NCBI GenBank assembly: GCA_902592445.1
Contig: CACJEN010000002.1
Coordinates: forward strand, 124,001-188,000
Source of the DNA: an uncultured Pelagibacteraceae bacterium
GTDB taxonomy: Bacteria > Pseudomonadota > Alphaproteobacteria > Pelagibacterales > Pelagibacteraceae
Length of the DNA: 64,000 bases
Direction: 5' to 3'
The notes below the pieces were generated by a model. That model ran no database searches. It was not told where the DNA came from and saw only the letters and a program-made list of their open reading frames with translations. The position numbers were made by a program, and so were the translations under genes. Positions 23,111-32,450 of the stretch are shown here, in pieces. The first letter of the stretch is position 1. Each line of letters opens with the position of its first letter.

Positions 23111-23581
23111 ATGAAAAAACTCTTAGGGATCGTGTTTCTGGGTTTGTTGTGGTTCAATATATCTAATGCACAGATTTTTAATTTTGAAAAAGTCTATATG
23201 TGTGGACCTAAAAAAATTTCATATGATGAGCAACATAAATCTAGAGGTTGGTACTATACAATTCATTTAGATAAAGATGAGAGATTTATTATTAGAAATA
23301 ATGAATATAATTATTCTTCTTTTGAAAAAACATACTATCATACTTTATGGGTTCAAAATGGCAAAATAACTTCAGCAGAACTCTCTAAAGACTCAACTAC
23401 TTATTATTTTGAGCTTACAAGTATATATTTACCTGGTGCCACAGATTCTTATAAACGAATAAAATATTTAGATATTAATTTTGACTCGATGACCTATGTA
23501 CAAAAAATCAAAGATATAAATGTTGATGGCACATCAAAAATGTTAAATCCCAAAAGTGGAGTTTGTTGGAAAGAGTGGTAA
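23111..23581 (+). CDS. Secreted hypothetical protein
   Basis: Signal peptide MKKLLGIVFLGLLWFNISNAQ; no family recognised. Confidence 0.55.
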   Translation: MKKLLGIVFLGLLWFNISNAQIFNFEKVYMCGPKKISYDEQHKSRGWYYTIHLDKDERFIIRNNEYNYSSFEKTYYHTLWVQNGKITSAELSKDSTTYYFELTSIYLPGATDSYKRIKYLDINFDSMTYVQKIKDINVDGTSKMLNPKSGVCWKEW

Positions 23582-24274: not shown

Positions 24275-24802
24275 ATGAAACAAAGAGGCTTCACCCTAAT
24301 AGAACTCCTAGTTGTTGTAGCTATCATCGGTATTCTAGCTGCTGTAGGAGTGGTTGCATATAATGGGTATACAATTAGTGCAAAAAAAAATGCCACTAAG
24401 GCAAATCACAAAATTATTATAAAATTTATGCAAGCCGAGACTAGAAAATGCGAAATGGACTCTACATTAGGTATATTTAACCTAAATGGAACTAATCTTC
24501 TAAATTGTTCTGATATATTTGGACCATCCGTAAGTACATCAAAAATAAATTTTGCAATGAAAAATTTTTTTCAATCAACAATTAAAAATGTTTTTAATGA
24601 TAGCAGGGAGTCTATCCATCCGGGCCCTTATCAAGGTAAATGTTATCCAAGTGGTAGTCAAAGTTCTTACTTAAATGAACAAGGTGTACATCACTTAGCA
24701 GTAGGTTGGTATCCATCTCAGAATAGACTTACACTTTATCTAGATACTTGTATTGAGGATAGTGGAAAAGCAACAAGTGTAACATATAATATTCGTGATT
24801 AA
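24275..24802 (+). CDS. Type IV pilin-like prepilin
   Basis: KQRGFTLIELLVVVAIIGILAAVGVVAYNGY type III signal peptide. Confidence 0.9.
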   Translation: MKQRGFTLIELLVVVAIIGILAAVGVVAYNGYTISAKKNATKANHKIIIKFMQAETRKCEMDSTLGIFNLNGTNLLNCSDIFGPSVSTSKINFAMKNFFQSTIKNVFNDSRESIHPGPYQGKCYPSGSQSSYLNEQGVHHLAVGWYPSQNRLTLYLDTCIEDSGKATSVTYNIRD

Positions 24803-24883: not shown

Positions 24884-24931
24884 TGGTGCCCCCGCACGGA
24901 TTCGAACCGCGGACCTATTGATTACAAATCA
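24884..24931 (-). repeat. att-like 3'-half fragment of tRNA-Thr (48 bp perfect)
   Basis: tggtgcccccgcacggattcgaaccgcggacctattgattacaaatca identical to 32375-32422. Confidence 0.96.
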
Positions 24932-25008
24932 GTAAGCGTAAATAATTTTCCTTTCATTAAGGTTGATACTACTTAACTTTTACACTCCCGTCTACAAACA
25001 TCATTTAT

Positions 25009-25029
25009 AAAGACTACAAAAAGACTACA
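25009..25029 (+). repeat. 21-bp direct repeat aaagactacaaaaagactaca, left copy
   Basis: Exact match with 32251-32271. Confidence 0.94.
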
Positions 25030-25071
25030 CTTAGGTTAGACATTATTTTAATCTTTTGGTAGCTTTTAAAA

Positions 25072-25776
25072 ATGATCACTCTGTTAATTACATTGGTTCC
25101 TCCATTGTTAATTTTATTATATTTTGTATTAACTGATAAATTTAAAGAACCTAAAGGCACTGTAATATTAATTTTCTTTCTTGGTTTTTTAATTTGTTTA
25201 CCTGCAGGAATATTGAATGGTCTAAGTCATGATTTTTTTTACGATGGATCAAAATATTCTGAAAATTTAACTAGTAGTTTCTTAGGTCCAGCGTGGGCTG
25301 AAGAGTTGTTAAAGTTTTCAATTCTTTATTTAATAGTTTTAAAAAGAAATGAATTCAATGAACCTATGGATGGTTTGGTTTATGGAGTCGTTGTTTCTTT
25401 AGGTTTTGCAACTTATGAGAATTATACTTACGTATATGAATGGGCTGAGCAAATAGCAAAAGACGAGGGTTATGATTTTGCTGAATTATCATATTTAGTA
25501 GCACTAGGCAGATCATACTCCGCCATTCCTTTGCATGGACTTAACGGTGCTGTAATGGGCTATTATTTTGGAATGTATGCTTTCACCGGAAATAAAAATT
25601 ATTTGATATTGTCATTAATTTTACCTTATCTATTTCACGGTTTTTATAATTTTCTTGGATGGCCAGACTCAATGTGGATCATACTTACTTTAGTTTTTTC
25701 TTCTCTGTATCTGCATAAACAATTAAAAAATAAGCAAAAATTAAAAAAGAGAGAACAAGAAGTTAAAAAAATATAA
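25072..25776 (+). CDS. PrsW family intramembrane metalloprotease
   Basis: GPAWAEELLKFSILYL, MDGLVYGVVVSLGFATYENYTYV, LHGLNGAVMGYYFG. Confidence 0.88.
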   Translation: MITLLITLVPPLLILLYFVLTDKFKEPKGTVILIFFLGFLICLPAGILNGLSHDFFYDGSKYSENLTSSFLGPAWAEELLKFSILYLIVLKRNEFNEPMDGLVYGVVVSLGFATYENYTYVYEWAEQIAKDEGYDFAELSYLVALGRSYSAIPLHGLNGAVMGYYFGMYAFTGNKNYLILSLILPYLFHGFYNFLGWPDSMWIILTLVFSSLYLHKQLKNKQKLKKREQEVKKI

Positions 25777-25783
25777 TTCAAAT

Positions 25784-26644
25784 ATGTCTAGATTATTTTT
25801 ATTAAGATTTTCTTTTTTATCTATTAAAAATTTAGTCAATACAAAATTAAATCTATTAGTAAATTTATCAATTTTTGTAATTATTTTTGCTTTAACAGCT
25901 TCGTTTATTTCAATTTTATTTGAGAATAGAATTGAACAACTCGAGACTAAAGTAACACAAAATGAGGTTAATCAAATATTGTATACCAAATGGTTAAACA
26001 GAACTCCAAAAATCATTTCTCAGATCGATAATGTATATCAAAGCAGAAAGGATGAAACTTTATTTTCGATGATTGTAACAGGATTGCCAGATGATGATGA
26101 TGACGAAACATCACAAATTTATTCTATGCGAGAACAGTTCCATAATTATTATTATTTTTTAAGTGATATTGCTCAAATAAATTTTCAAAATATAGATTTA
26201 GCTTTAACAGATGCAATATTATTATCCAATTCCAATGAAGATATTGAGTCTGTTGAAAGACAAAAAATATTATTTAGAAATTTAATTATAGAATTTGATA
26301 GAAATTCACAAGAAAGATTGGTGTATAGAGAGAGCCACGACTTTAAGGAAGGATGGAATAAAACACAATTACACTATAAAGGTTATTCAGTTTTTGTAGA
26401 TAAAAAAATAGAGATTATTCAAAAACAAAAAGATTTTTTTTTAAATTTTGGTACAGAATTTTTTTCAAAAAAAAGAAAGTCTTACTCAAATGATAATATT
26501 ACAAATCTTCAAGAGATAAAAGATTTTGCTAAATTAGAGACAAGATTTATTTTTTTTGCTTTTGTAATTCAATTTGTAATTTTCATAGTTTTGCAAATAT
26601 TTGAAATAACCATTGAAAGAGATAGGAAAAATGAGAAGAATTAA
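25784..26644 (+). CDS. Hypothetical two-TM protein with long extracytoplasmic/cytoplasmic helical region (A)
   Basis: N- and C-terminal TM helices; overlaps next gene. Confidence 0.65.
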   Translation: MSRLFLLRFSFLSIKNLVNTKLNLLVNLSIFVIIFALTASFISILFENRIEQLETKVTQNEVNQILYTKWLNRTPKIISQIDNVYQSRKDETLFSMIVTGLPDDDDDETSQIYSMREQFHNYYYFLSDIAQINFQNIDLALTDAILLSNSNEDIESVERQKILFRNLIIEFDRNSQERLVYRESHDFKEGWNKTQLHYKGYSVFVDKKIEIIQKQKDFFLNFGTEFFSKKRKSYSNDNITNLQEIKDFAKLETRFIFFAFVIQFVIFIVLQIFEITIERDRKNEKN

Positions 26645-27458
26645 AAATGTATCCAATAAAATAATTATATTAGTAATTCTCTCAGGGTTTTTTAATTTGT
26701 TATCATATTGTTTCGATCAACTAGTAATTCAAGCAGAACTTAAAAATCGAGATCTTGAAAGAAGACTAGTTTCTAATAGGATCAGTTTAGAGACTTTGTC
26801 TTATGAAATATCAACATTAAATGATTTGAGATTTGAAATTGTAAAATCTACAGATTATTTTCACAAACATTTACCAACAAATTTATATGGAGCAATAAGT
26901 TTTTTAGGTAAAGATAAAAACTCAGAATTTAGTTGGCAAAAAATTTATGATGAAAAAACAGCAAAGAAGATTGGTGATAATTTTCTTAATAATTTAAATC
27001 AATTAATTTTAGACTATAATAAAAAAACTGATGATATTGATAAAGTTTTTAAATCAATATTTCCAGAACCTGTATTCTATAACAGACTACTTGGAAAATA
27101 TTATCCAATAAAAGAATTAAAAATTAACGAAAAGATTTTGAATACATTTAATACAAACGTATCTGAGGATGAAGATGAACAATACAAAAGAGACTCAGAA
27201 AATTATAAAATTTATACAAAAATTTATGAATCCATTAGAGAATTTAAAACTCTTGAATATCAATTTGATTATTATTTGAAAAGATCAGAACGTAAATATG
27301 TAATTCAATTTTCAGATTTTTTTAATTTTGTTGATGAATATGCTAAAGAACAAAATAAAATTAATTACTTTATCCTTTTAAGCATAATTGCACAAATAAT
27401 GGGTATTTTATTTATACTTCTTTTGTTTAAATCAATAATGATCAATAAAAATAATTAA
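26631..27458 (+). CDS. Hypothetical two-TM protein (B), same topology as A
   Basis: N- and C-terminal TM helices; start chosen at MRRIKNV. Confidence 0.65.
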   Translation: MRRIKNVSNKIIILVILSGFFNLLSYCFDQLVIQAELKNRDLERRLVSNRISLETLSYEISTLNDLRFEIVKSTDYFHKHLPTNLYGAISFLGKDKNSEFSWQKIYDEKTAKKIGDNFLNNLNQLILDYNKKTDDIDKVFKSIFPEPVFYNRLLGKYYPIKELKINEKILNTFNTNVSEDEDEQYKRDSENYKIYTKIYESIREFKTLEYQFDYYLKRSERKYVIQFSDFFNFVDEYAKEQNKINYFILLSIIAQIMGILFILLLFKSIMINKNN

Positions 27459-28706
27459 ATGATCAGAAATTTTTTATATTTAGTATTTTTTTTACTTTTT
27501 TTTAAAAATGTTTTTGCTAACGATGATAAAAATCTAACTGATTTATCTACAGTATACGATGAGTATGATGAATGTATTTATATTAATACAAAAAAAGGAA
27601 ATACATTAATCAGGGAATATGACTTATATGATTTAGTAATTAAAAAGAGTACATCTCCTTTTATTTATGAATGTAATAAGATCTTCTCTAAAATAATTAA
27701 TAGTGAAGAAATTAATTTTAAAAAAATAATTGAATCAAGCATTCAAAAAAATGAAGGTGAAAGCAAAAATAAATACATCAAAATATATAAAAAATTTCAT
27801 AGAAACATTATTTTTCACTCAAAAAATATTAATGAGGTTAAAAATTCTTTAGATGAGTTGGAAAATAATTATTTTAAAAAATCAAATGTAAATATCAATC
27901 AGGATGCAGCAAAAATGGCAGGTACTTTAGGATGGTTTTATTATGTACATAAAGACCTGTTTAATTTTGAAAAAGCAGAAAAGTATCTATCTATAGCAGT
28001 AGAAAAAACAAAGGATCATTATAGCTTAAAGTACTATCAAAACAATTTAGGAATCATTTATGATCAAGATAGAAATTCAAATTTTACAAAAAAAAAAAAT
28101 AATAAAATAGCATTTGATTTATATAGTAAGGCAGCTAAATTAGGTTTGCATCATGCATACGGAAATCTAGGTAAATTTTATATACTTGGCTTAGGTGGAA
28201 TAAAACCAGATTATGATAAAGCAATCAAAAATTATAAATTAAAAAGAATCTCATCATTTGGTGACGATAATTTCTCAGATATTAAAATCTTATATAGTAA
28301 ACAAAGACTCCCAAAAAATTTGGATGAATATTTGTTTTGGCTTGAAGAATATCTAGTAGAAAATCAGGACTCTAAAGTTTTTCAACAACTTGCTTGGTTC
28401 ACAGACGAGGACGAATCTTCTGCTACTAGTTTAATTCAGCATATGAGAATATATAAGTGGCAATATTTGTGCTTTAAGTATTGTGAATCTTATTATTCAA
28501 GAGAAAGATCTGAGTCAGAATTGAGCATTTTAAAAACTAAACATCTCTCAAAAGACCAAATTAATGAAGCTATAAAACAAGCTGATCTTTGGGAAAAGTC
28601 TAACTGGAATAAAGAAATTAAAAAATTTAAAAAAAAAACTAATATACTTAAAAAGAAAGATTTGGTTGATTTAATCAAAAATGCATTGATAAGGAATGAG
28701 AATTAA
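27459..28706 (+). CDS. Secreted Sel1-repeat protein
   Basis: Signal peptide; AYGNLGKFYILGLGGIKPDYDKAIKNYK Sel1 unit. Confidence 0.7.
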   Translation: MIRNFLYLVFFLLFFKNVFANDDKNLTDLSTVYDEYDECIYINTKKGNTLIREYDLYDLVIKKSTSPFIYECNKIFSKIINSEEINFKKIIESSIQKNEGESKNKYIKIYKKFHRNIIFHSKNINEVKNSLDELENNYFKKSNVNINQDAAKMAGTLGWFYYVHKDLFNFEKAEKYLSIAVEKTKDHYSLKYYQNNLGIIYDQDRNSNFTKKKNNKIAFDLYSKAAKLGLHHAYGNLGKFYILGLGGIKPDYDKAIKNYKLKRISSFGDDNFSDIKILYSKQRLPKNLDEYLFWLEEYLVENQDSKVFQQLAWFTDEDESSATSLIQHMRIYKWQYLCFKYCESYYSRERSESELSILKTKHLSKDQINEAIKQADLWEKSNWNKEIKKFKKKTNILKKKDLVDLIKNALIRNEN

Positions 28707-29209
28707 AATTCTCTTTTTTTTTGATTTTTATAATCTGTTTTATCACCTAAATTTAACTTAAGTTTAAGTTCAGCAATTTTTTTTTCTAATTCAATTACTT
28801 CTATTGAAATTTGTTCCTTCTCATTTTCATCAACCTTATCATCGTCAAGAGCTTTTCTGGTTTCTTCCATTACATCACCTATAGACTCACCTAATCTAAG
28901 TAAATTATTGATTATTTCGTCACTAGTATCGTGATCTTTTCTATTGGCAATTTCCTTTCTAAGTAAGGTTTCATAAGCTGTAAGAAAAGGGGTTCCTTTA
29001 CCAATCCTTTTACAATGAATATCTAATTCCAACCCATCTTGTATATGAAGTTGCCGATCTTTGAAATTAGGGTTTGAGATATGTTCAATAGCTTTTCTTT
29101 TTTTTTCTATAACAGTTTCAATATTTTCATAACCAATATCGTCAGCTAAATCTTTTAAAACTCTTTCAAATGAATATGGCTTTCTTGGATAGCCTTTTCT
29201 TTTACTCAT
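28703..29209 (-). CDS. Hypothetical small basic protein, possibly phage-regulator (CP76/CII)-like
   Basis: C-terminal DDDKVDENEKEQISIEVIELEKKIAELKLKL resembles phage CII-like proteins (weak). Confidence 0.4.
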   Translation of the reverse strand: MSKRKGYPRKPYSFERVLKDLADDIGYENIETVIEKKRKAIEHISNPNFKDRQLHIQDGLELDIHCKRIGKGTPFLTAYETLLRKEIANRKDHDTSDEIINNLLRLGESIGDVMEETRKALDDDKVDENEKEQISIEVIELEKKIAELKLKLNLGDKTDYKNQKKREF

Positions 29210-29233
29210 AAATTTAGATTATTAGAAATTCAT

Positions 29234-29263
29234 CCGTAGGCAAAGTCAAAAGTTAACCTACGG
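29234..29263. other. Hairpin ccgtagg-(16)-cctacgg
   Basis: 7-bp perfect inverted repeat. Confidence 0.6.
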
Positions 29264-29293
29264 GTAAAGCATTTTAAAATCACTATAAATAGG

Positions 29294-29318
29294 GTGTGTT
29301 TAATTTTATTGAACACAC
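29294..29318. other. Hairpin gtgtgtt-(11)-aacacac
   Basis: 7-bp perfect inverted repeat. Confidence 0.6.
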
Positions 29319-29322
29319 AAAA

Positions 29323-29406
29323 GATTAAGAGGAAGTGAGCAAATTGATCTTTGGTTAAATTATAGTTCTTAACTTCCTTTCTGCAATTTGTGAATTCCTC
29401 TTAATC
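29323..29406 (+). ncRNA. 84-nt long stem-loop; candidate structured RNA/leader or DNA structural element
   Basis: gattaagaggaa/ttcctcttaatc 12-bp stem, internal loop, caaattg/caatttg 7-bp stem, gttaa/ttaac apical stem. Confidence 0.6.
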
Positions 29407-29430
29407 CTAAACACTAACAAAGAGGAGAAA

Positions 29431-29667
29431 ATGAAGAAAACAAAAATAGAGAAAAAAAACAGTAATGATGAAATGATGATTGATTTGCCTAGCGGAGTAT
29501 TTGGCTATTTAGGAATACTTTTTATAGGATTTGCAGTTGTAGATTATGCTGCGTCTAGGATGGGGACAAATTTAACCGCATTCTTAGGACCTATGTCACA
29601 GTTCACTCCAATTGCAGCAGGTTTAATTGGAGGAATATTTTTAACAATAGGCGATAAAAGTGAATAA
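29431..29667 (+). CDS. Small membrane protein
   Basis: RBS gaggag; two hydrophobic segments. Confidence 0.6.
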   Translation: MKKTKIEKKNSNDEMMIDLPSGVFGYLGILFIGFAVVDYAASRMGTNLTAFLGPMSQFTPIAAGLIGGIFLTIGDKSE

Positions 29668-29679
29668 ATCGTCAACAAC

Positions 29680-29707
29680 ATCCCCTGTAAAGGAACAGGG
29701 GATTTTA
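29680..29707 (+). terminator. Hairpin atcccctgt-aaagga-acaggggat + tttt
   Basis: 9-bp perfect stem followed by T-run between small ORFs. Confidence 0.75.
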
Positions 29708-29726
29708 ATCAAACAAAGGAGATAAA

Positions 29727-29927
29727 ATGGCAGATCCAAATAAATATAAATCAGTAAGCATACCTAGAGATACTTATGAAACTTTAGAATGGCTAAGAAA
29801 AGGTAACATTATTAATGCAGAATTAACATTTAGTAAGGTTATTGAATATTTAGCCAAAAGTAAAATCAAAGAAATTCAGCATAAGTCAAATGAGTGGAGT
29901 GCTGAAGAAGATCTAACAATTAACTAA
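29727..29927 (+). CDS. Small RHH-like putative DNA-binding protein
   Basis: YKSVSIPRDTYETLEWLRKGN resembles ribbon-helix-helix start; RBS aaaggag. Confidence 0.5.
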   Translation: MADPNKYKSVSIPRDTYETLEWLRKGNIINAELTFSKVIEYLAKSKIKEIQHKSNEWSAEEDLTIN

Positions 29928-29954
29928 TAAATTAAATAAAGGAGTAAAATAAAT

Positions 29955-31340
29955 ATGAGTCAACTAATAATAACATGTCCTAGCTGTAATGAAACTTTTT
30001 CTGCAGATCAGGCATTACAAAATCACTTAAAGAGCAAAGAAAAAGAGTACCAAGAAGAAATTAAGGTTAAGGAAAAGCTTTTAAAAGAAAAATTTAATCT
30101 TGATTTCAAGCTAAAAGAAAAAAATTTAGAGAAAGAACTTTCATTAAAAGCACAAAACGAAAGTAAAGCGAAAGTTCAGGCATTGCAGTCTAAAATTTTA
30201 GAGGCCGAAAAGAGTAGAAAAGATACTGAATTAAAGATGACAGCAACGCTAAAGCAAAAAGAAAAAGCAATTGAAGATAAACTTAAGGCTAAAGAAAAAG
30301 CAATGGAGAAAAGTTCTAAAGAGGCAGAGTTTAAGTTAATTGCCAGTTTGAAGCTTAAGGAAAAAGAAATCGAAAAACAGTTAAAAGAGAAAGCTTTAAT
30401 TAGAGAAAATAAGCAAAGAAAAGAGCTTATGGATCTTCAAACTAAAGTTGCACAAGCTGAGAAGAATAAAAAACAAATTGAAGCTAAGTTAATTGCAGAT
30501 CTTAAACAAAAAGAAAAAGCTATTGAACAAAAAATTAAAGAAAAATCTGAAAGCGATGTTCAAAAACTTAAAGATCTGATGGCTAAAAAAGACAAAGAAA
30601 GAGAAATAGAAAAAAGGCGTACTCAAGTAAAAATTGATGAAATGTCTAAACAACTAAAACAAAAATCGATGGAAGTTCAAGGTGAAGTTCAAGAAGAACT
30701 TATTGAGGATTACCTTCGAAGTAAATTTCCACAAGATACTGTAGAAGAAGTTAAAAAGGGAGCAAAAGGTGCAGATTGTATACTTACAATTAATAATAAA
30801 GATCAAGAAAAACTTGCACAGATTTACTTTGAAAGCAAAGATCACAAAACTTTTAAAGAAGAATGGGTAAGCAAACTATTAAGTGATATGAAAGATAAAA
30901 ATATCAATTATGGTGTTTTAATTACTACAGCTATGCCAAAAGACTATAATAAACAACATGATGGCTATGTTGAAAGACATGGTAAAAGAATTATTATCAT
31001 TCCAATGAATTATCCAATAATTCACATGTTAGTAAGTTTTATTAAAACTAACTTGATAAATGAACATAAATCTAAGAAGGATTTTGATGCACCAAAAATG
31101 ATGAAAAGACTTTGGGATCATATAATGGGTCCATCATTTCAATTACCTGTAAGAAATTTGTATCAATCAATGATTAAAATGAATGATCTTATGGGAAAAG
31201 AAAAAAAGTTTTTTGAAAACAGTATTGCTAACAAGGAAAGAGCTATGCTTGATATGGAAGAAGACTTTAGAGATATGATAAGATCTTTTACACTTAAAGT
31301 TGGACCTGATTGTATAATTCAAATTGAAGAGAAAAAATAA
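29955..31340 (+). CDS. DUF2130-type protein: zinc-ribbon-like start, long coiled coil, PD-(D/E)XK-like C-terminal domain
   Basis: ITCPSCNETF; repeated LKQKEKAIE.KLKEK; GADCIL...IYFESKDHKTFKEEWVSKL. Confidence 0.8.
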   Translation: MSQLIITCPSCNETFSADQALQNHLKSKEKEYQEEIKVKEKLLKEKFNLDFKLKEKNLEKELSLKAQNESKAKVQALQSKILEAEKSRKDTELKMTATLKQKEKAIEDKLKAKEKAMEKSSKEAEFKLIASLKLKEKEIEKQLKEKALIRENKQRKELMDLQTKVAQAEKNKKQIEAKLIADLKQKEKAIEQKIKEKSESDVQKLKDLMAKKDKEREIEKRRTQVKIDEMSKQLKQKSMEVQGEVQEELIEDYLRSKFPQDTVEEVKKGAKGADCILTINNKDQEKLAQIYFESKDHKTFKEEWVSKLLSDMKDKNINYGVLITTAMPKDYNKQHDGYVERHGKRIIIIPMNYPIIHMLVSFIKTNLINEHKSKKDFDAPKMMKRLWDHIMGPSFQLPVRNLYQSMIKMNDLMGKEKKFFENSIANKERAMLDMEEDFRDMIRSFTLKVGPDCIIQIEEKK

Positions 31341-32249
31341 GTGAAATTAGAATTTAAAAAAGGTTCAAAATATTCAAGAAAAGATATTGGTTGGGTTTGC
31401 TTTCCTGACAAGGGCAGACCTGCCGGCGGTGATTGGGATACAGGTTATGTACGTGTCGAAGATAATTTAATAATCTTCATGAATATTGGTGTGCCTGGAA
31501 CAACAGAACATGATTTTGATAATCATTATGATCATTCAAAAGGAGTTATTGTTTGGTACGGAAAACCAAGATCTCATTCTCAACAACCAACTTTTCAAAA
31601 GTTATTATCCGGTGAAATGACGCCACATTTTTTTGCGCGTTGGGATAATAAAGATCCCCAATTCACTTATCTAGGTATTGGAAAAGTTGTTAGTTTTAAG
31701 GATGGTGTTCTTTGTTTAGATGGAAATAAAAAAGAGGTAGAAACTATAGAATTAAAATTAACTGTTGAAGATTCTGGTGAGATAATTCCTATTCAAAATC
31801 AAACTAATGTTAATAATGAAAAAGATTATTCAATTGAAAATAATTCAGTTCCTAAATCTTCTTTTTTATTAGAAAAACATCTTGAGGATTATATTATTAG
31901 AAATTGGACCAATATAGAGTTGAATAAAGATTATGATATTCATAAAGAAAACAACAAACTTTGTACTCAATATTCAACAGGATCTGGTCCTTTAGATATT
32001 TTAGCAATTAGTAAAGATAAAAAAGAATTTTTAGTTATAGAATTAAAGAAGGGTAGAGCTAGTGATGTAGTTATGGGTCAGATCCAAAGATATATGGGGC
32101 ATATTAAAAATAATTTAGCTGGTGATAAAGATGTTAAGGGACTTATCATTGCATTAGAGGATGATAAGAATTTAAGAGATGCATTATCTGTTGCACCAAA
32201 TATAAAATTTATGAAATATGAAGTATCTTTCAAATTAAGTTCTTTTTAG
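31341..32249 (+). CDS. N-terminal DUF3427-like reader domain + C-terminal NucS/DUF91-like nuclease
   Basis: GTG directly after TAA of previous gene; GSGPLDILAISKDKKEFLVIELKKGRASDVVMGQIQRYMGHI; N-term PQFTYLGIGKVVSF. Confidence 0.68.
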   Translation: MKLEFKKGSKYSRKDIGWVCFPDKGRPAGGDWDTGYVRVEDNLIIFMNIGVPGTTEHDFDNHYDHSKGVIVWYGKPRSHSQQPTFQKLLSGEMTPHFFARWDNKDPQFTYLGIGKVVSFKDGVLCLDGNKKEVETIELKLTVEDSGEIIPIQNQTNVNNEKDYSIENNSVPKSSFLLEKHLEDYIIRNWTNIELNKDYDIHKENNKLCTQYSTGSGPLDILAISKDKKEFLVIELKKGRASDVVMGQIQRYMGHIKNNLAGDKDVKGLIIALEDDKNLRDALSVAPNIKFMKYEVSFKLSSF

Positions 32250-32250
32250 C

Positions 32251-32271
32251 AAAGACTACAAAAAGACTACA
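32251..32271 (+). repeat. 21-bp direct repeat aaagactacaaaaagactaca, right copy
   Basis: Exact match with 25009-25029. Confidence 0.94.
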
Positions 32272-32374
32272 GTCAGTTCTTCTTCCTTCCATTCTATATT
32301 ATTATTCAACGATTTTTTGTTTTTAAAAAAGTTAAGGAAATTATTATGTTTGTTGAAAATAAATGAGATTTTAG

Positions 32375-32450
32375 TGGTGCCCCCGCACGGATTCGAACCG
32401 CGGACCTATTGATTACAAATCAATTGCTCTACCAACTGAGCTACAAGGGC
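32375..32450 (-). tRNA. tRNA-Thr(TGT), CCA encoded
   Basis: Reverse complement GCCCTTGTAGCTCAGTTGGTAGAGCAATTGATTTGTAATCAATAGGTCCGCGGTTCGAATCCGTGCGGGGGCACCA. Confidence 0.96.

What the first reader, a model, noticed from the sequence alone, without database searches (positions are those of the whole stretch)
29955..32249. Candidate undescribed two-nuclease module: DUF2130-type coiled-coil nuclease plus reader-domain/NucS-like nuclease
Seen: two translationally coupled ORFs (TAA immediately followed by GTG) inside a tRNA-Thr island. The first has a CPSC zinc-ribbon-like start, a long charged coiled coil and a C-terminal GADCIL...YFESKDHKTFKEEW stretch fitting a PD-(D/E)XK core. The second ends in PLDILAIS...LVIELKKGRASDVVMGQIQRY, the NucS/DUF91 catalytic pattern. 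Its N-terminal region (YDHSKGVIVWYGKPRSHSQQPTFQ...PQFTYLGIGKVV) reminds me of DUF3427/modified-base reader domains. Inference: a modification-dependent (type IV-like) restriction or other anti-MGE system, possibly controlled by the preceding RHH-like 66-aa protein.
Basis: partly seen in the sequence, partly recalled or inferred. Interest (0 to 1): 0.75.

Follow-up and report, generated by a model that had tools for sequence, protein, structure and literature searches.

The report
Modified-DNA-cutting nuclease on SAR11 mobile cassette
In the abundant ocean bacterium SAR11, a small mobile DNA cassette carries an enzyme that probably recognises chemically modified (foreign) DNA with one half and cuts it with the other; it usually travels alone, and here has a second nuclease gene directly in front of it.

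Summary
ORF1 (29955-31340) is a DUF2130 coiled-coil PD-(D/E)XK protein; ORF2 (31341-32249) starts directly after its stop codon. ORF2 joins a DUF3427/SRA-fold reader to a NucS/EndoMS-type nuclease. Both domains are under strong purifying selection. ORF2 is most likely a small, NTP-independent, modification-dependent (type IV) restriction enzyme with a new reader-nuclease pairing.

The two-gene module is not obligate: in 8 of 11 SAR11 genomes with full-length ORF2 no DUF2130 gene was found. The pair recurs intact in three genomes, once at another locus.

The element (about 24884-32428) is bounded by copies of the tRNA-Thr 3' half, has a 21-bp repeat near each end and no integrase. Solo ORF2 cassettes show the same layout with different end repeats, so they look like non-autonomous cassettes moved in trans. 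A viral contig with tRNA-Thr attP, integrase, small terminase and a CII-like homologue is a possible autonomous relative. Cleavage and target base were not tested.

The parts
31341..32249 (+). ORF2: SRA-like (DUF3427) reader plus NucS/EndoMS-type PD-(D/E)XK nuclease, 302 aa, GTG start
   Evidence: dN/dS about 0.02 in both domains
31341..31775 (+). Reader domain, residues 1-145. Predicted base-flipping pocket residues T34, Y36, F46, N61, W72 align with SauUSI M829, Y831, F841, D858, W868
   Evidence: DUF3427 E 2e-7; SauUSI 7clg TRD E 4.6e-7; AF2 pLDDT 81.7; Foldseek hits MspJI, LpnPI, ScoMcrA SRA, TagI, UHRF1; pocket columns invariant; mapping
31857..32246 (+). Nuclease domain, residues 173-302; conserved E178, D219, E234-L-K236, Q247, Y251
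   Evidence: NucS_C; invariant columns in 13 relatives; Foldseek top hits NucS 2vld and EndoMS 5gke
29955..31340 (+). ORF1: DUF2130 protein: N-terminal C2H2-like finger, long coiled coil, C-terminal PD-(D/E)XK core with D274 and E293-S-K295
   Evidence: D and E-S-K invariant in 9 relatives
29727..29927 (+). 66-aa small protein, ribbon-helix-helix-like by eye, upstream of DUF2130; similar small proteins precede DUF2130 in L009 and L024
   Evidence: no significant profile match
29431..29667 (+). 78-aa predicted membrane protein, conserved in the two other complete elements
28703..29209 (-). CII/CP76-like phage regulator, homologous to a CII-like protein in the satellite-like viral contig L060
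   Evidence: phrog_101 E 2.1e-7; BLASTP E 4e-12 to L060
25784..28706 (+). Variable cargo: two membrane proteins and a Sel1-repeat protein; replaced by other genes in the homologous elements of G881 and G882
25072..25776 (+). PrsW-like membrane protein (by eye), constant left-end gene of the element
   Evidence: Conserved in G881 and G882, 93.6% aa identity
24884..24931 (+). 48-bp exact copy of the tRNA-Thr 3' half: left attachment site
   Evidence: in G881 homology begins at the core CCTATTGATTACAAATC
25009..25029 (+). Left end repeat AAAGACTACAAAAAGACTACA (putative integrase arm site)
   Evidence: Only two places in the 64-kb window (up to 2 mismatches), here and at 32251
32251..32271 (+). 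Right end repeat AAAGACTACAAAAAGACTACA (putative integrase arm site)
32375..32450 (-). tRNA-Thr (TGT), integration target; its 3' half is the right attachment site

Best explanation
ORF2 is a stand-alone modification-dependent (type IV) restriction endonuclease. Its N-terminal SRA-fold DUF3427 domain flips out a modified base, probably a 5-substituted cytosine, from incoming phage or plasmid DNA. Its C-terminal NucS/EndoMS-type PD-(D/E)XK domain then cuts nearby, without NTP. The host is spared because its DNA lacks the modification, so no partner methylase is needed. Shown by computation: the two folds, the intact catalytic and pocket positions, strong selection on both domains, absence of a methylase, helicase or ATPase in the cassettes, and spread on tRNA-Thr cassettes without an integrase. 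Inferred: base flipping, the target base, cleavage, and a role against phages. DUF2130 (ORF1) is an optional, translationally coupled second nuclease in one element type, perhaps degrading the cut DNA; this last step is conjecture.
For: Reader: DUF3427 over cut-off; SauUSI 7clg TRD is the best PDB profile match, E 4.6e-7; SauUSI cuts 5mC/5hmC DNA and its TRD has an SRA fold (PMC7913695); AF2 model pLDDT 81.7 whose first 13 Foldseek hits are modified-base readers, MspJI E 1.6e-5, LpnPI, ScoMcrA, SUVH6, TagI, PvuRts1I, UHRF1; pocket columns invariant in all homologues aligned. Nuclease: NucS_C, Foldseek NucS/EndoMS, catalytic residues invariant in 13 relatives. Relatives of the nuclease sit inside type I R-M operons or next to a methyltransferase. 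Selection: dN/dS 0.023 reader, 0.20 linker, 0.018 nuclease. No C5-cytosine methyltransferase in 11 of 11 carriers against 37 of 150 congeners over cut-off, p 0.05.
Against: No biochemical data on this protein or a close relative. The key base-contacting Asp858 of SauUSI is Asn61 here, so the target base may differ. The methyltransferase exclusion is borderline (p 0.05), many of these genomes are incomplete, and carriers are not independent. Profile searches also give spurious antibody matches (down to E 7e-4). SauUSI itself was not among the 50 listed Foldseek hits. NucS/EndoMS proper is a mismatch-repair nuclease, so a repair role cannot be excluded.
Confidence: 0.75

Rival explanations
1. 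A true two-component restriction module: ORF2 senses and nicks or cuts modified DNA, and DUF2130, made by coupled translation, binds with its zinc finger and coiled coil and completes degradation; both are needed for full defence.
For: Translational coupling TAA|GTG is kept in three genomes; the pair moved together to a different chromosomal locus in G881; both genes are constrained there.
Against: 8 of 11 genomes with full-length ORF2 have no DUF2130 gene (some are incomplete). DUF2130 is found without ORF2 in 17 of the 18 sampled family genomes that match it, often next to an ExoI-like exonuclease.
Confidence: 0.2
2. ORF2 is a DNA-repair nuclease (EndoMS/NucS-like) that uses the SRA-like domain to find damaged or deaminated bases in the host's own DNA.
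For: The nuclease fold is closest to NucS/EndoMS; SRA/PUA-like domains can in principle recognise lesions (general knowledge).
Confidence: 0.1
3. ORF1 and ORF2 are independent cargo genes that happen to be adjacent at the right end of one island type; DUF2130 serves DNA processing for the element or host.
For: What lies to the left of ORF2 varies between cassettes while ORF2 stays at the cassette edge; DUF2130 has its own partners elsewhere.
Against: Stop-start coupling with no intergenic space is kept in all three genomes that have both.
Confidence: 0.35
4. ORF2 mainly protects the mobile element: it attacks competing phages or elements with modified DNA, in the manner of defence genes on phage satellites.
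For: The element carries a CII-like gene related to one on a viral contig with an integrase, a small terminase and a tRNA-Thr attP.
Against: The window element has no integrase, terminase or replication gene, so satellite status is not shown.
Confidence: 0.3

Closest known systems
MspJI / LpnPI family (modification-dependent restriction endonucleases)
SauUSI (type IV, Staphylococcus aureus)
   Same: DUF3427/SRA-fold target domain with matching pocket positions (PMC7913695)
   Different: SauUSI has a PLD nuclease and an SF2 ATPase and needs ATP; ORF2 has neither. Asp858 is Asn61 here
NucS/EndoMS mismatch endonuclease
   Same: C-terminal catalytic domain fold and motifs
   Different: Different N-terminal domain; fails the NucS equivalog cut-off; accessory, not core
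PADLOC PDC-S02 candidate family
   Same: C-terminal 140 residues match two models at E 1.7e-58 and 3e-53
   Different: The match covers only the nuclease half; no experimental data found; the N-terminal part of the model is not matched
DUF2130 proteins (Pfam PF09903)
   Same: ORF1 matches over 225 residues
   Different: ORF1 has an N-terminal C2H2-like finger and long coiled coil, and ORF2 as its downstream gene
tRNA-integrated marine elements (tycheposons, phage satellites)
   Same: tRNA 3'-half attachment sites, phage-type regulator, accessory cargo
   Different: No integrase inside the window element; membership not established (comparison from general knowledge)

Membership tests
Type IV (modification-dependent) restriction endonuclease | Domain that reads modified bases | tested here: met
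   By homology and fold only: DUF3427 over cut-off, SauUSI profile match, SRA fold in the AF2 model
Type IV (modification-dependent) restriction endonuclease | Nuclease domain with intact active site | tested here: met
   NucS_C match and conserved E178, D219, E234, K236
Type IV (modification-dependent) restriction endonuclease | No cognate methyltransferase in the system | tested here: met
   None recognised among the ORFs of the element (profile scans) or of the solo cassettes (read by eye); no PF00145 in any of 11 carrier genomes
Type IV (modification-dependent) restriction endonuclease | Cuts modified DNA only | not testable with these tools
   Needs biochemistry or plaque assays
Type IV (modification-dependent) restriction endonuclease | Host lacks the target modification | tested here: inconclusive
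   0 of 11 carriers have PF00145 against 37 of 150 congeners over cut-off, p 0.05, genomes incomplete
Pfam DUF3427 (PF11907) | Score over gathering cut-off | tested here: met
   31.0 against 27.7 bits for residues 1-157; not reported in the full-length scan
NucS/EndoMS | NucS_C catalytic domain | tested here: met
   30.9 against 24 bits
NucS/EndoMS | Full-length NucS equivalog (NF003270) | tested here: not met
   35.9 against 216 bits
SauUSI-type enzyme | PLD nuclease and SF2 ATPase domains | tested here: not met
   Absent from ORF2 and ORF1 in Pfam scans
MspJI family | SRA-like N-terminus plus C-terminal PD-(D/E)XK nuclease | tested here: met
   Architecture only
MspJI family | Mrr-type nuclease homologous to MspJI | tested here: not met
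   ORF2's nuclease matches NucS_C, not Mrr_cat
PADLOC PDC-S02 | Match over the whole model | tested here: not met
   Residues 161-300 match model positions 165-306 of 308 only
DUF2130 / PD-(D/E)XK | Score over cut-off and conserved D and ExK | tested here: met
   108.1 against 26.7 bits; D274, E293, K295 invariant
Obligate two-gene module ORF1-ORF2 | Co-occurrence in all genomes with ORF2 | tested here: not met
   3 of 11
Phage satellite | Integrase and packaging or replication genes | tested here: not met
   None among the window element's ORFs; the one integrase match in the genome assembly is on another contig. Possible relative L060 has integrase, small terminase and primase-like genes

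The most novel reading that the evidence does not exclude
SAR11 keeps a system of minimal, integrase-less gene cassettes at tRNA-Thr, each bounded by tRNA 3'-half copies and by its own matching end repeats, which different integrases acting in trans can move one at a time. The SRA-NucS restriction enzyme is a favoured passenger, and in one element type it works together with a coupled DUF2130 nuclease as a two-step modified-DNA destroyer.
Probability: 0.25. Interest if true: 0.7.

Novelty: new variant of a known kind. Interest (0 to 1): 0.55.

Why it matters
SAR11 is among the most abundant cell types on Earth and little is known of how its small genomes resist phages. A single-gene, methylase-free enzyme that destroys modified DNA would be a cheap defence for such a genome, and would imply that modified DNA is a real threat to it. 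The att-bounded cassettes give a testable model of how single accessory genes are exchanged between SAR11 strains.

Tried and rejected
Full-length AF2 of ORF2 gave a poor reader (pLDDT about 50); modelling the domain alone with four distant homologues fixed this. phmmer with the single reader sequence against the PDB found nothing. A scan of viral contigs for DUF2130 relatives found none; isolated phage genomes hold only distant DUF2130 relatives, in Helicobacter prophages. No match to ORF2 in isolated phage genomes. In-frame read-through of ORF1 into ORF2 was considered: the frames coincide only because the start follows the stop directly, and the slightly higher DUF3427 score of the joined frame is not evidence of fusion. 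ORF1-ORF2 as an obligate module was rejected on co-occurrence. L060's integrase as the direct mover of the window element was not supported: its attP matches but it lacks the AAAGACTACA repeats.

Full report
WHAT IS THERE. The window is from a SAR11 (Pelagibacter-type) genome: the closest loci are titled uncultured Pelagibacteraceae. ORF1 is DUF2130 (E 5.9e-31) with a significant Mrr_cat hit and a borderline C2H2-like finger; its D274 and E293-S-K295 are invariant among nine aligned SAR11 sequences. ORF2 ends in a NucS_C domain.

THE READER DOMAIN. Residues 1-157 scanned alone match Pfam DUF3427 over its cut-off (E 2e-7, 31.0 against 27.7 bits); in the full-length scan HMMER did not report it. 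A profile of the domain with distant homologues has the SauUSI target-recognition domain (7clg, residues 807-916) as its best PDB match, E 4.6e-7. SauUSI cuts 5mC/5hmC DNA; its TRD has an SRA fold and a modelled flipping pocket of Met829, Tyr831, Phe841, Ile842, Asp858 and Trp868 (PMC7913695). These align with T34, Y36, F46, M47, N61 and W72; all but M47 are invariant in the homologues aligned. The domain modelled with ten sequences has pLDDT 81.7. Its first 13 Foldseek hits in the PDB are all modified-base readers: MspJI (E 1.6e-5), LpnPI, ScoMcrA, SUVH6, TagI, KRYPTONITE, PvuRts1I, UHRF1. SauUSI is not in the 50 hits listed.

THE NUCLEASE DOMAIN. In the full-length model this part is well predicted in most ten-residue blocks (pLDDT mostly 65-94) and matches NucS 2vld (E 7e-6) and EndoMS 5gke. 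E178, D219, E234, K236, Q247 and Y251 are invariant in the 13 sequences aligned.

SELECTION AND DISTRIBUTION. Full-length ORF2 orthologues are rare (5 of 399 congeners) yet 89-99% identical in protein, while the neighbouring core genes rlmB and NAD kinase are only 68-81% identical to the window's, which points to horizontal transfer.

MODULARITY. The nuclease occurs with MrcB_N in SAR11 (L004, L005) and with an unassigned, PUA-like-looking N-terminus in SAR11 (L003) and elsewhere (L038, L051). Relatives lie inside type I R-M operons in Acinetobacter and Paracoccus plasmids and after a methyltransferase in Sphingobium. PADLOC lists the nuclease half as candidate PDC-S02.

IS IT ONE MODULE? Of 11 genomes with full-length ORF2 only three carry DUF2130, in each directly upstream with TAA|GTG kept. 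In the others ORF2 is alone. In other SAR11 genomes DUF2130 is often adjacent to, and in several cases overlaps the start of, an ExoI-like exonuclease gene (by eye). The pair is therefore optional, though stable where present.

THE MOBILE ELEMENT. The tRNA-Thr 3' half is copied exactly at 24884-24931. The 21-mer AAAGACTACAAAAAGACTACA occurs in the window (up to 2 mismatches) only at 25009 and 32251, about 80 bp inside the left attachment site and directly after ORF2. In G882 the same element lies between att copies with both repeats. In G881 it sits at another locus (neighbours by eye include trigger factor, clpP, clpX and lon), and homology at its left end begins at the core CCTATTGATTACAAATC. 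The ends (PrsW-like gene on the left; CII-like gene to ORF2 on the right) are constant and the middle cargo differs. In six solo loci ORF2 starts about 90-95 bp after an att copy, and short repeats at that end recur about 60-95 bp before the next att copy (the tRNA-Thr gene in five of them), with different repeats in different cassettes. None has an integrase between att copies in the ORFs listed. I read these as integrase arm sites; this is inference. Viral contig L060 joins a tRNA-Thr attP, an integrase (phrog_1, E 4e-53), a small terminase (phrog_51) and a CII-like protein homologous to the window's (E 4e-12), so it may be an autonomous relative; it lacks the window's end repeats. In 201 congeners about 55 have two or more copies of the tRNA-Thr 3' half (my count from the listing).

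HOST MODIFICATION. None of 11 ORF2 carriers has a C5-cytosine methyltransferase, against 37 of 150 congeners over the Pfam cut-off (Fisher p 0.05; 44 of 150 and p 0.03 with weak hits). This is what a 5mC-dependent nuclease predicts, but it is borderline, on incomplete and related genomes.

CONCLUSION. It works like MspJI (reader plus PD-(D/E)XK in one chain, no NTPase) with a SauUSI-type reader and a NucS-type nuclease. It is not a member of either family by sequence. It is best filed as a new domain combination among modification-dependent restriction enzymes, carried by tRNA-Thr cassettes in SAR11. The target base, cleavage and any role of DUF2130 remain to be shown.

Noticed in passing
24884-24931, 25009, 32251, 32375-32450; L007, L008, L010, L011, L012, L014: att-bounded cassettes at tRNA-Thr with matching short repeats at both ends, different in different cassettes and without an integrase; several stacked in tandem (three att copies in L007).
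   Followed up: partly
L060:1-8916: Viral contig with tRNA-Thr attP, tyrosine recombinase, small terminase, primase-like gene and CII-like gene: looks like a SAR11 phage satellite.
   Followed up: partly
window 23111-23581; L010, L011, L012, L013, L014 directly after ORF2; L004, L005, L008: Many different SAR11 proteins share a nearly identical signal peptide (MKKLLGIVVLGLL...), conserved in DNA, with unrelated mature parts; it abuts the stop codon of solo ORF2 genes, as if it were a recombination border. L007 and L008 keep only a broken remnant there.
   Followed up: no
window 24275-24802; L007:2678-4738: Pilin-like genes (GFTLIELLVVVAIIGILAAVGVVAYNGYT) in the same hotspot, one in the window and four in L007.
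   Followed up: no
L019, L021, L024, L025, L026, L028, L029: In SAR11, DUF2130 is next to an ExoI-like exonuclease gene and, in several of these, a 128-137-aa basic protein: an apparently uncharacterised conserved gene set.
   Followed up: no
L017, L052, L060, window 28703-29209: CII-like genes recur near nuclease cargo, on the opposite strand to it in the window, L017 and L052; L052 and L060 also share a small lipoprotein with the motif YKPVIDTAGRSGTF.
   Followed up: partly
L038 and L049 (Acinetobacter plasmids): Between hsdS and hsdR of type I R-M operons one plasmid has a NucS-type protein and another an HNH protein in the same slot.
   Followed up: no
L080:841-1851: SAR11 protein with a DUF3427-like N-terminus and a different putative nuclease C-terminus (IEVKTTKG motif).
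   Followed up: no
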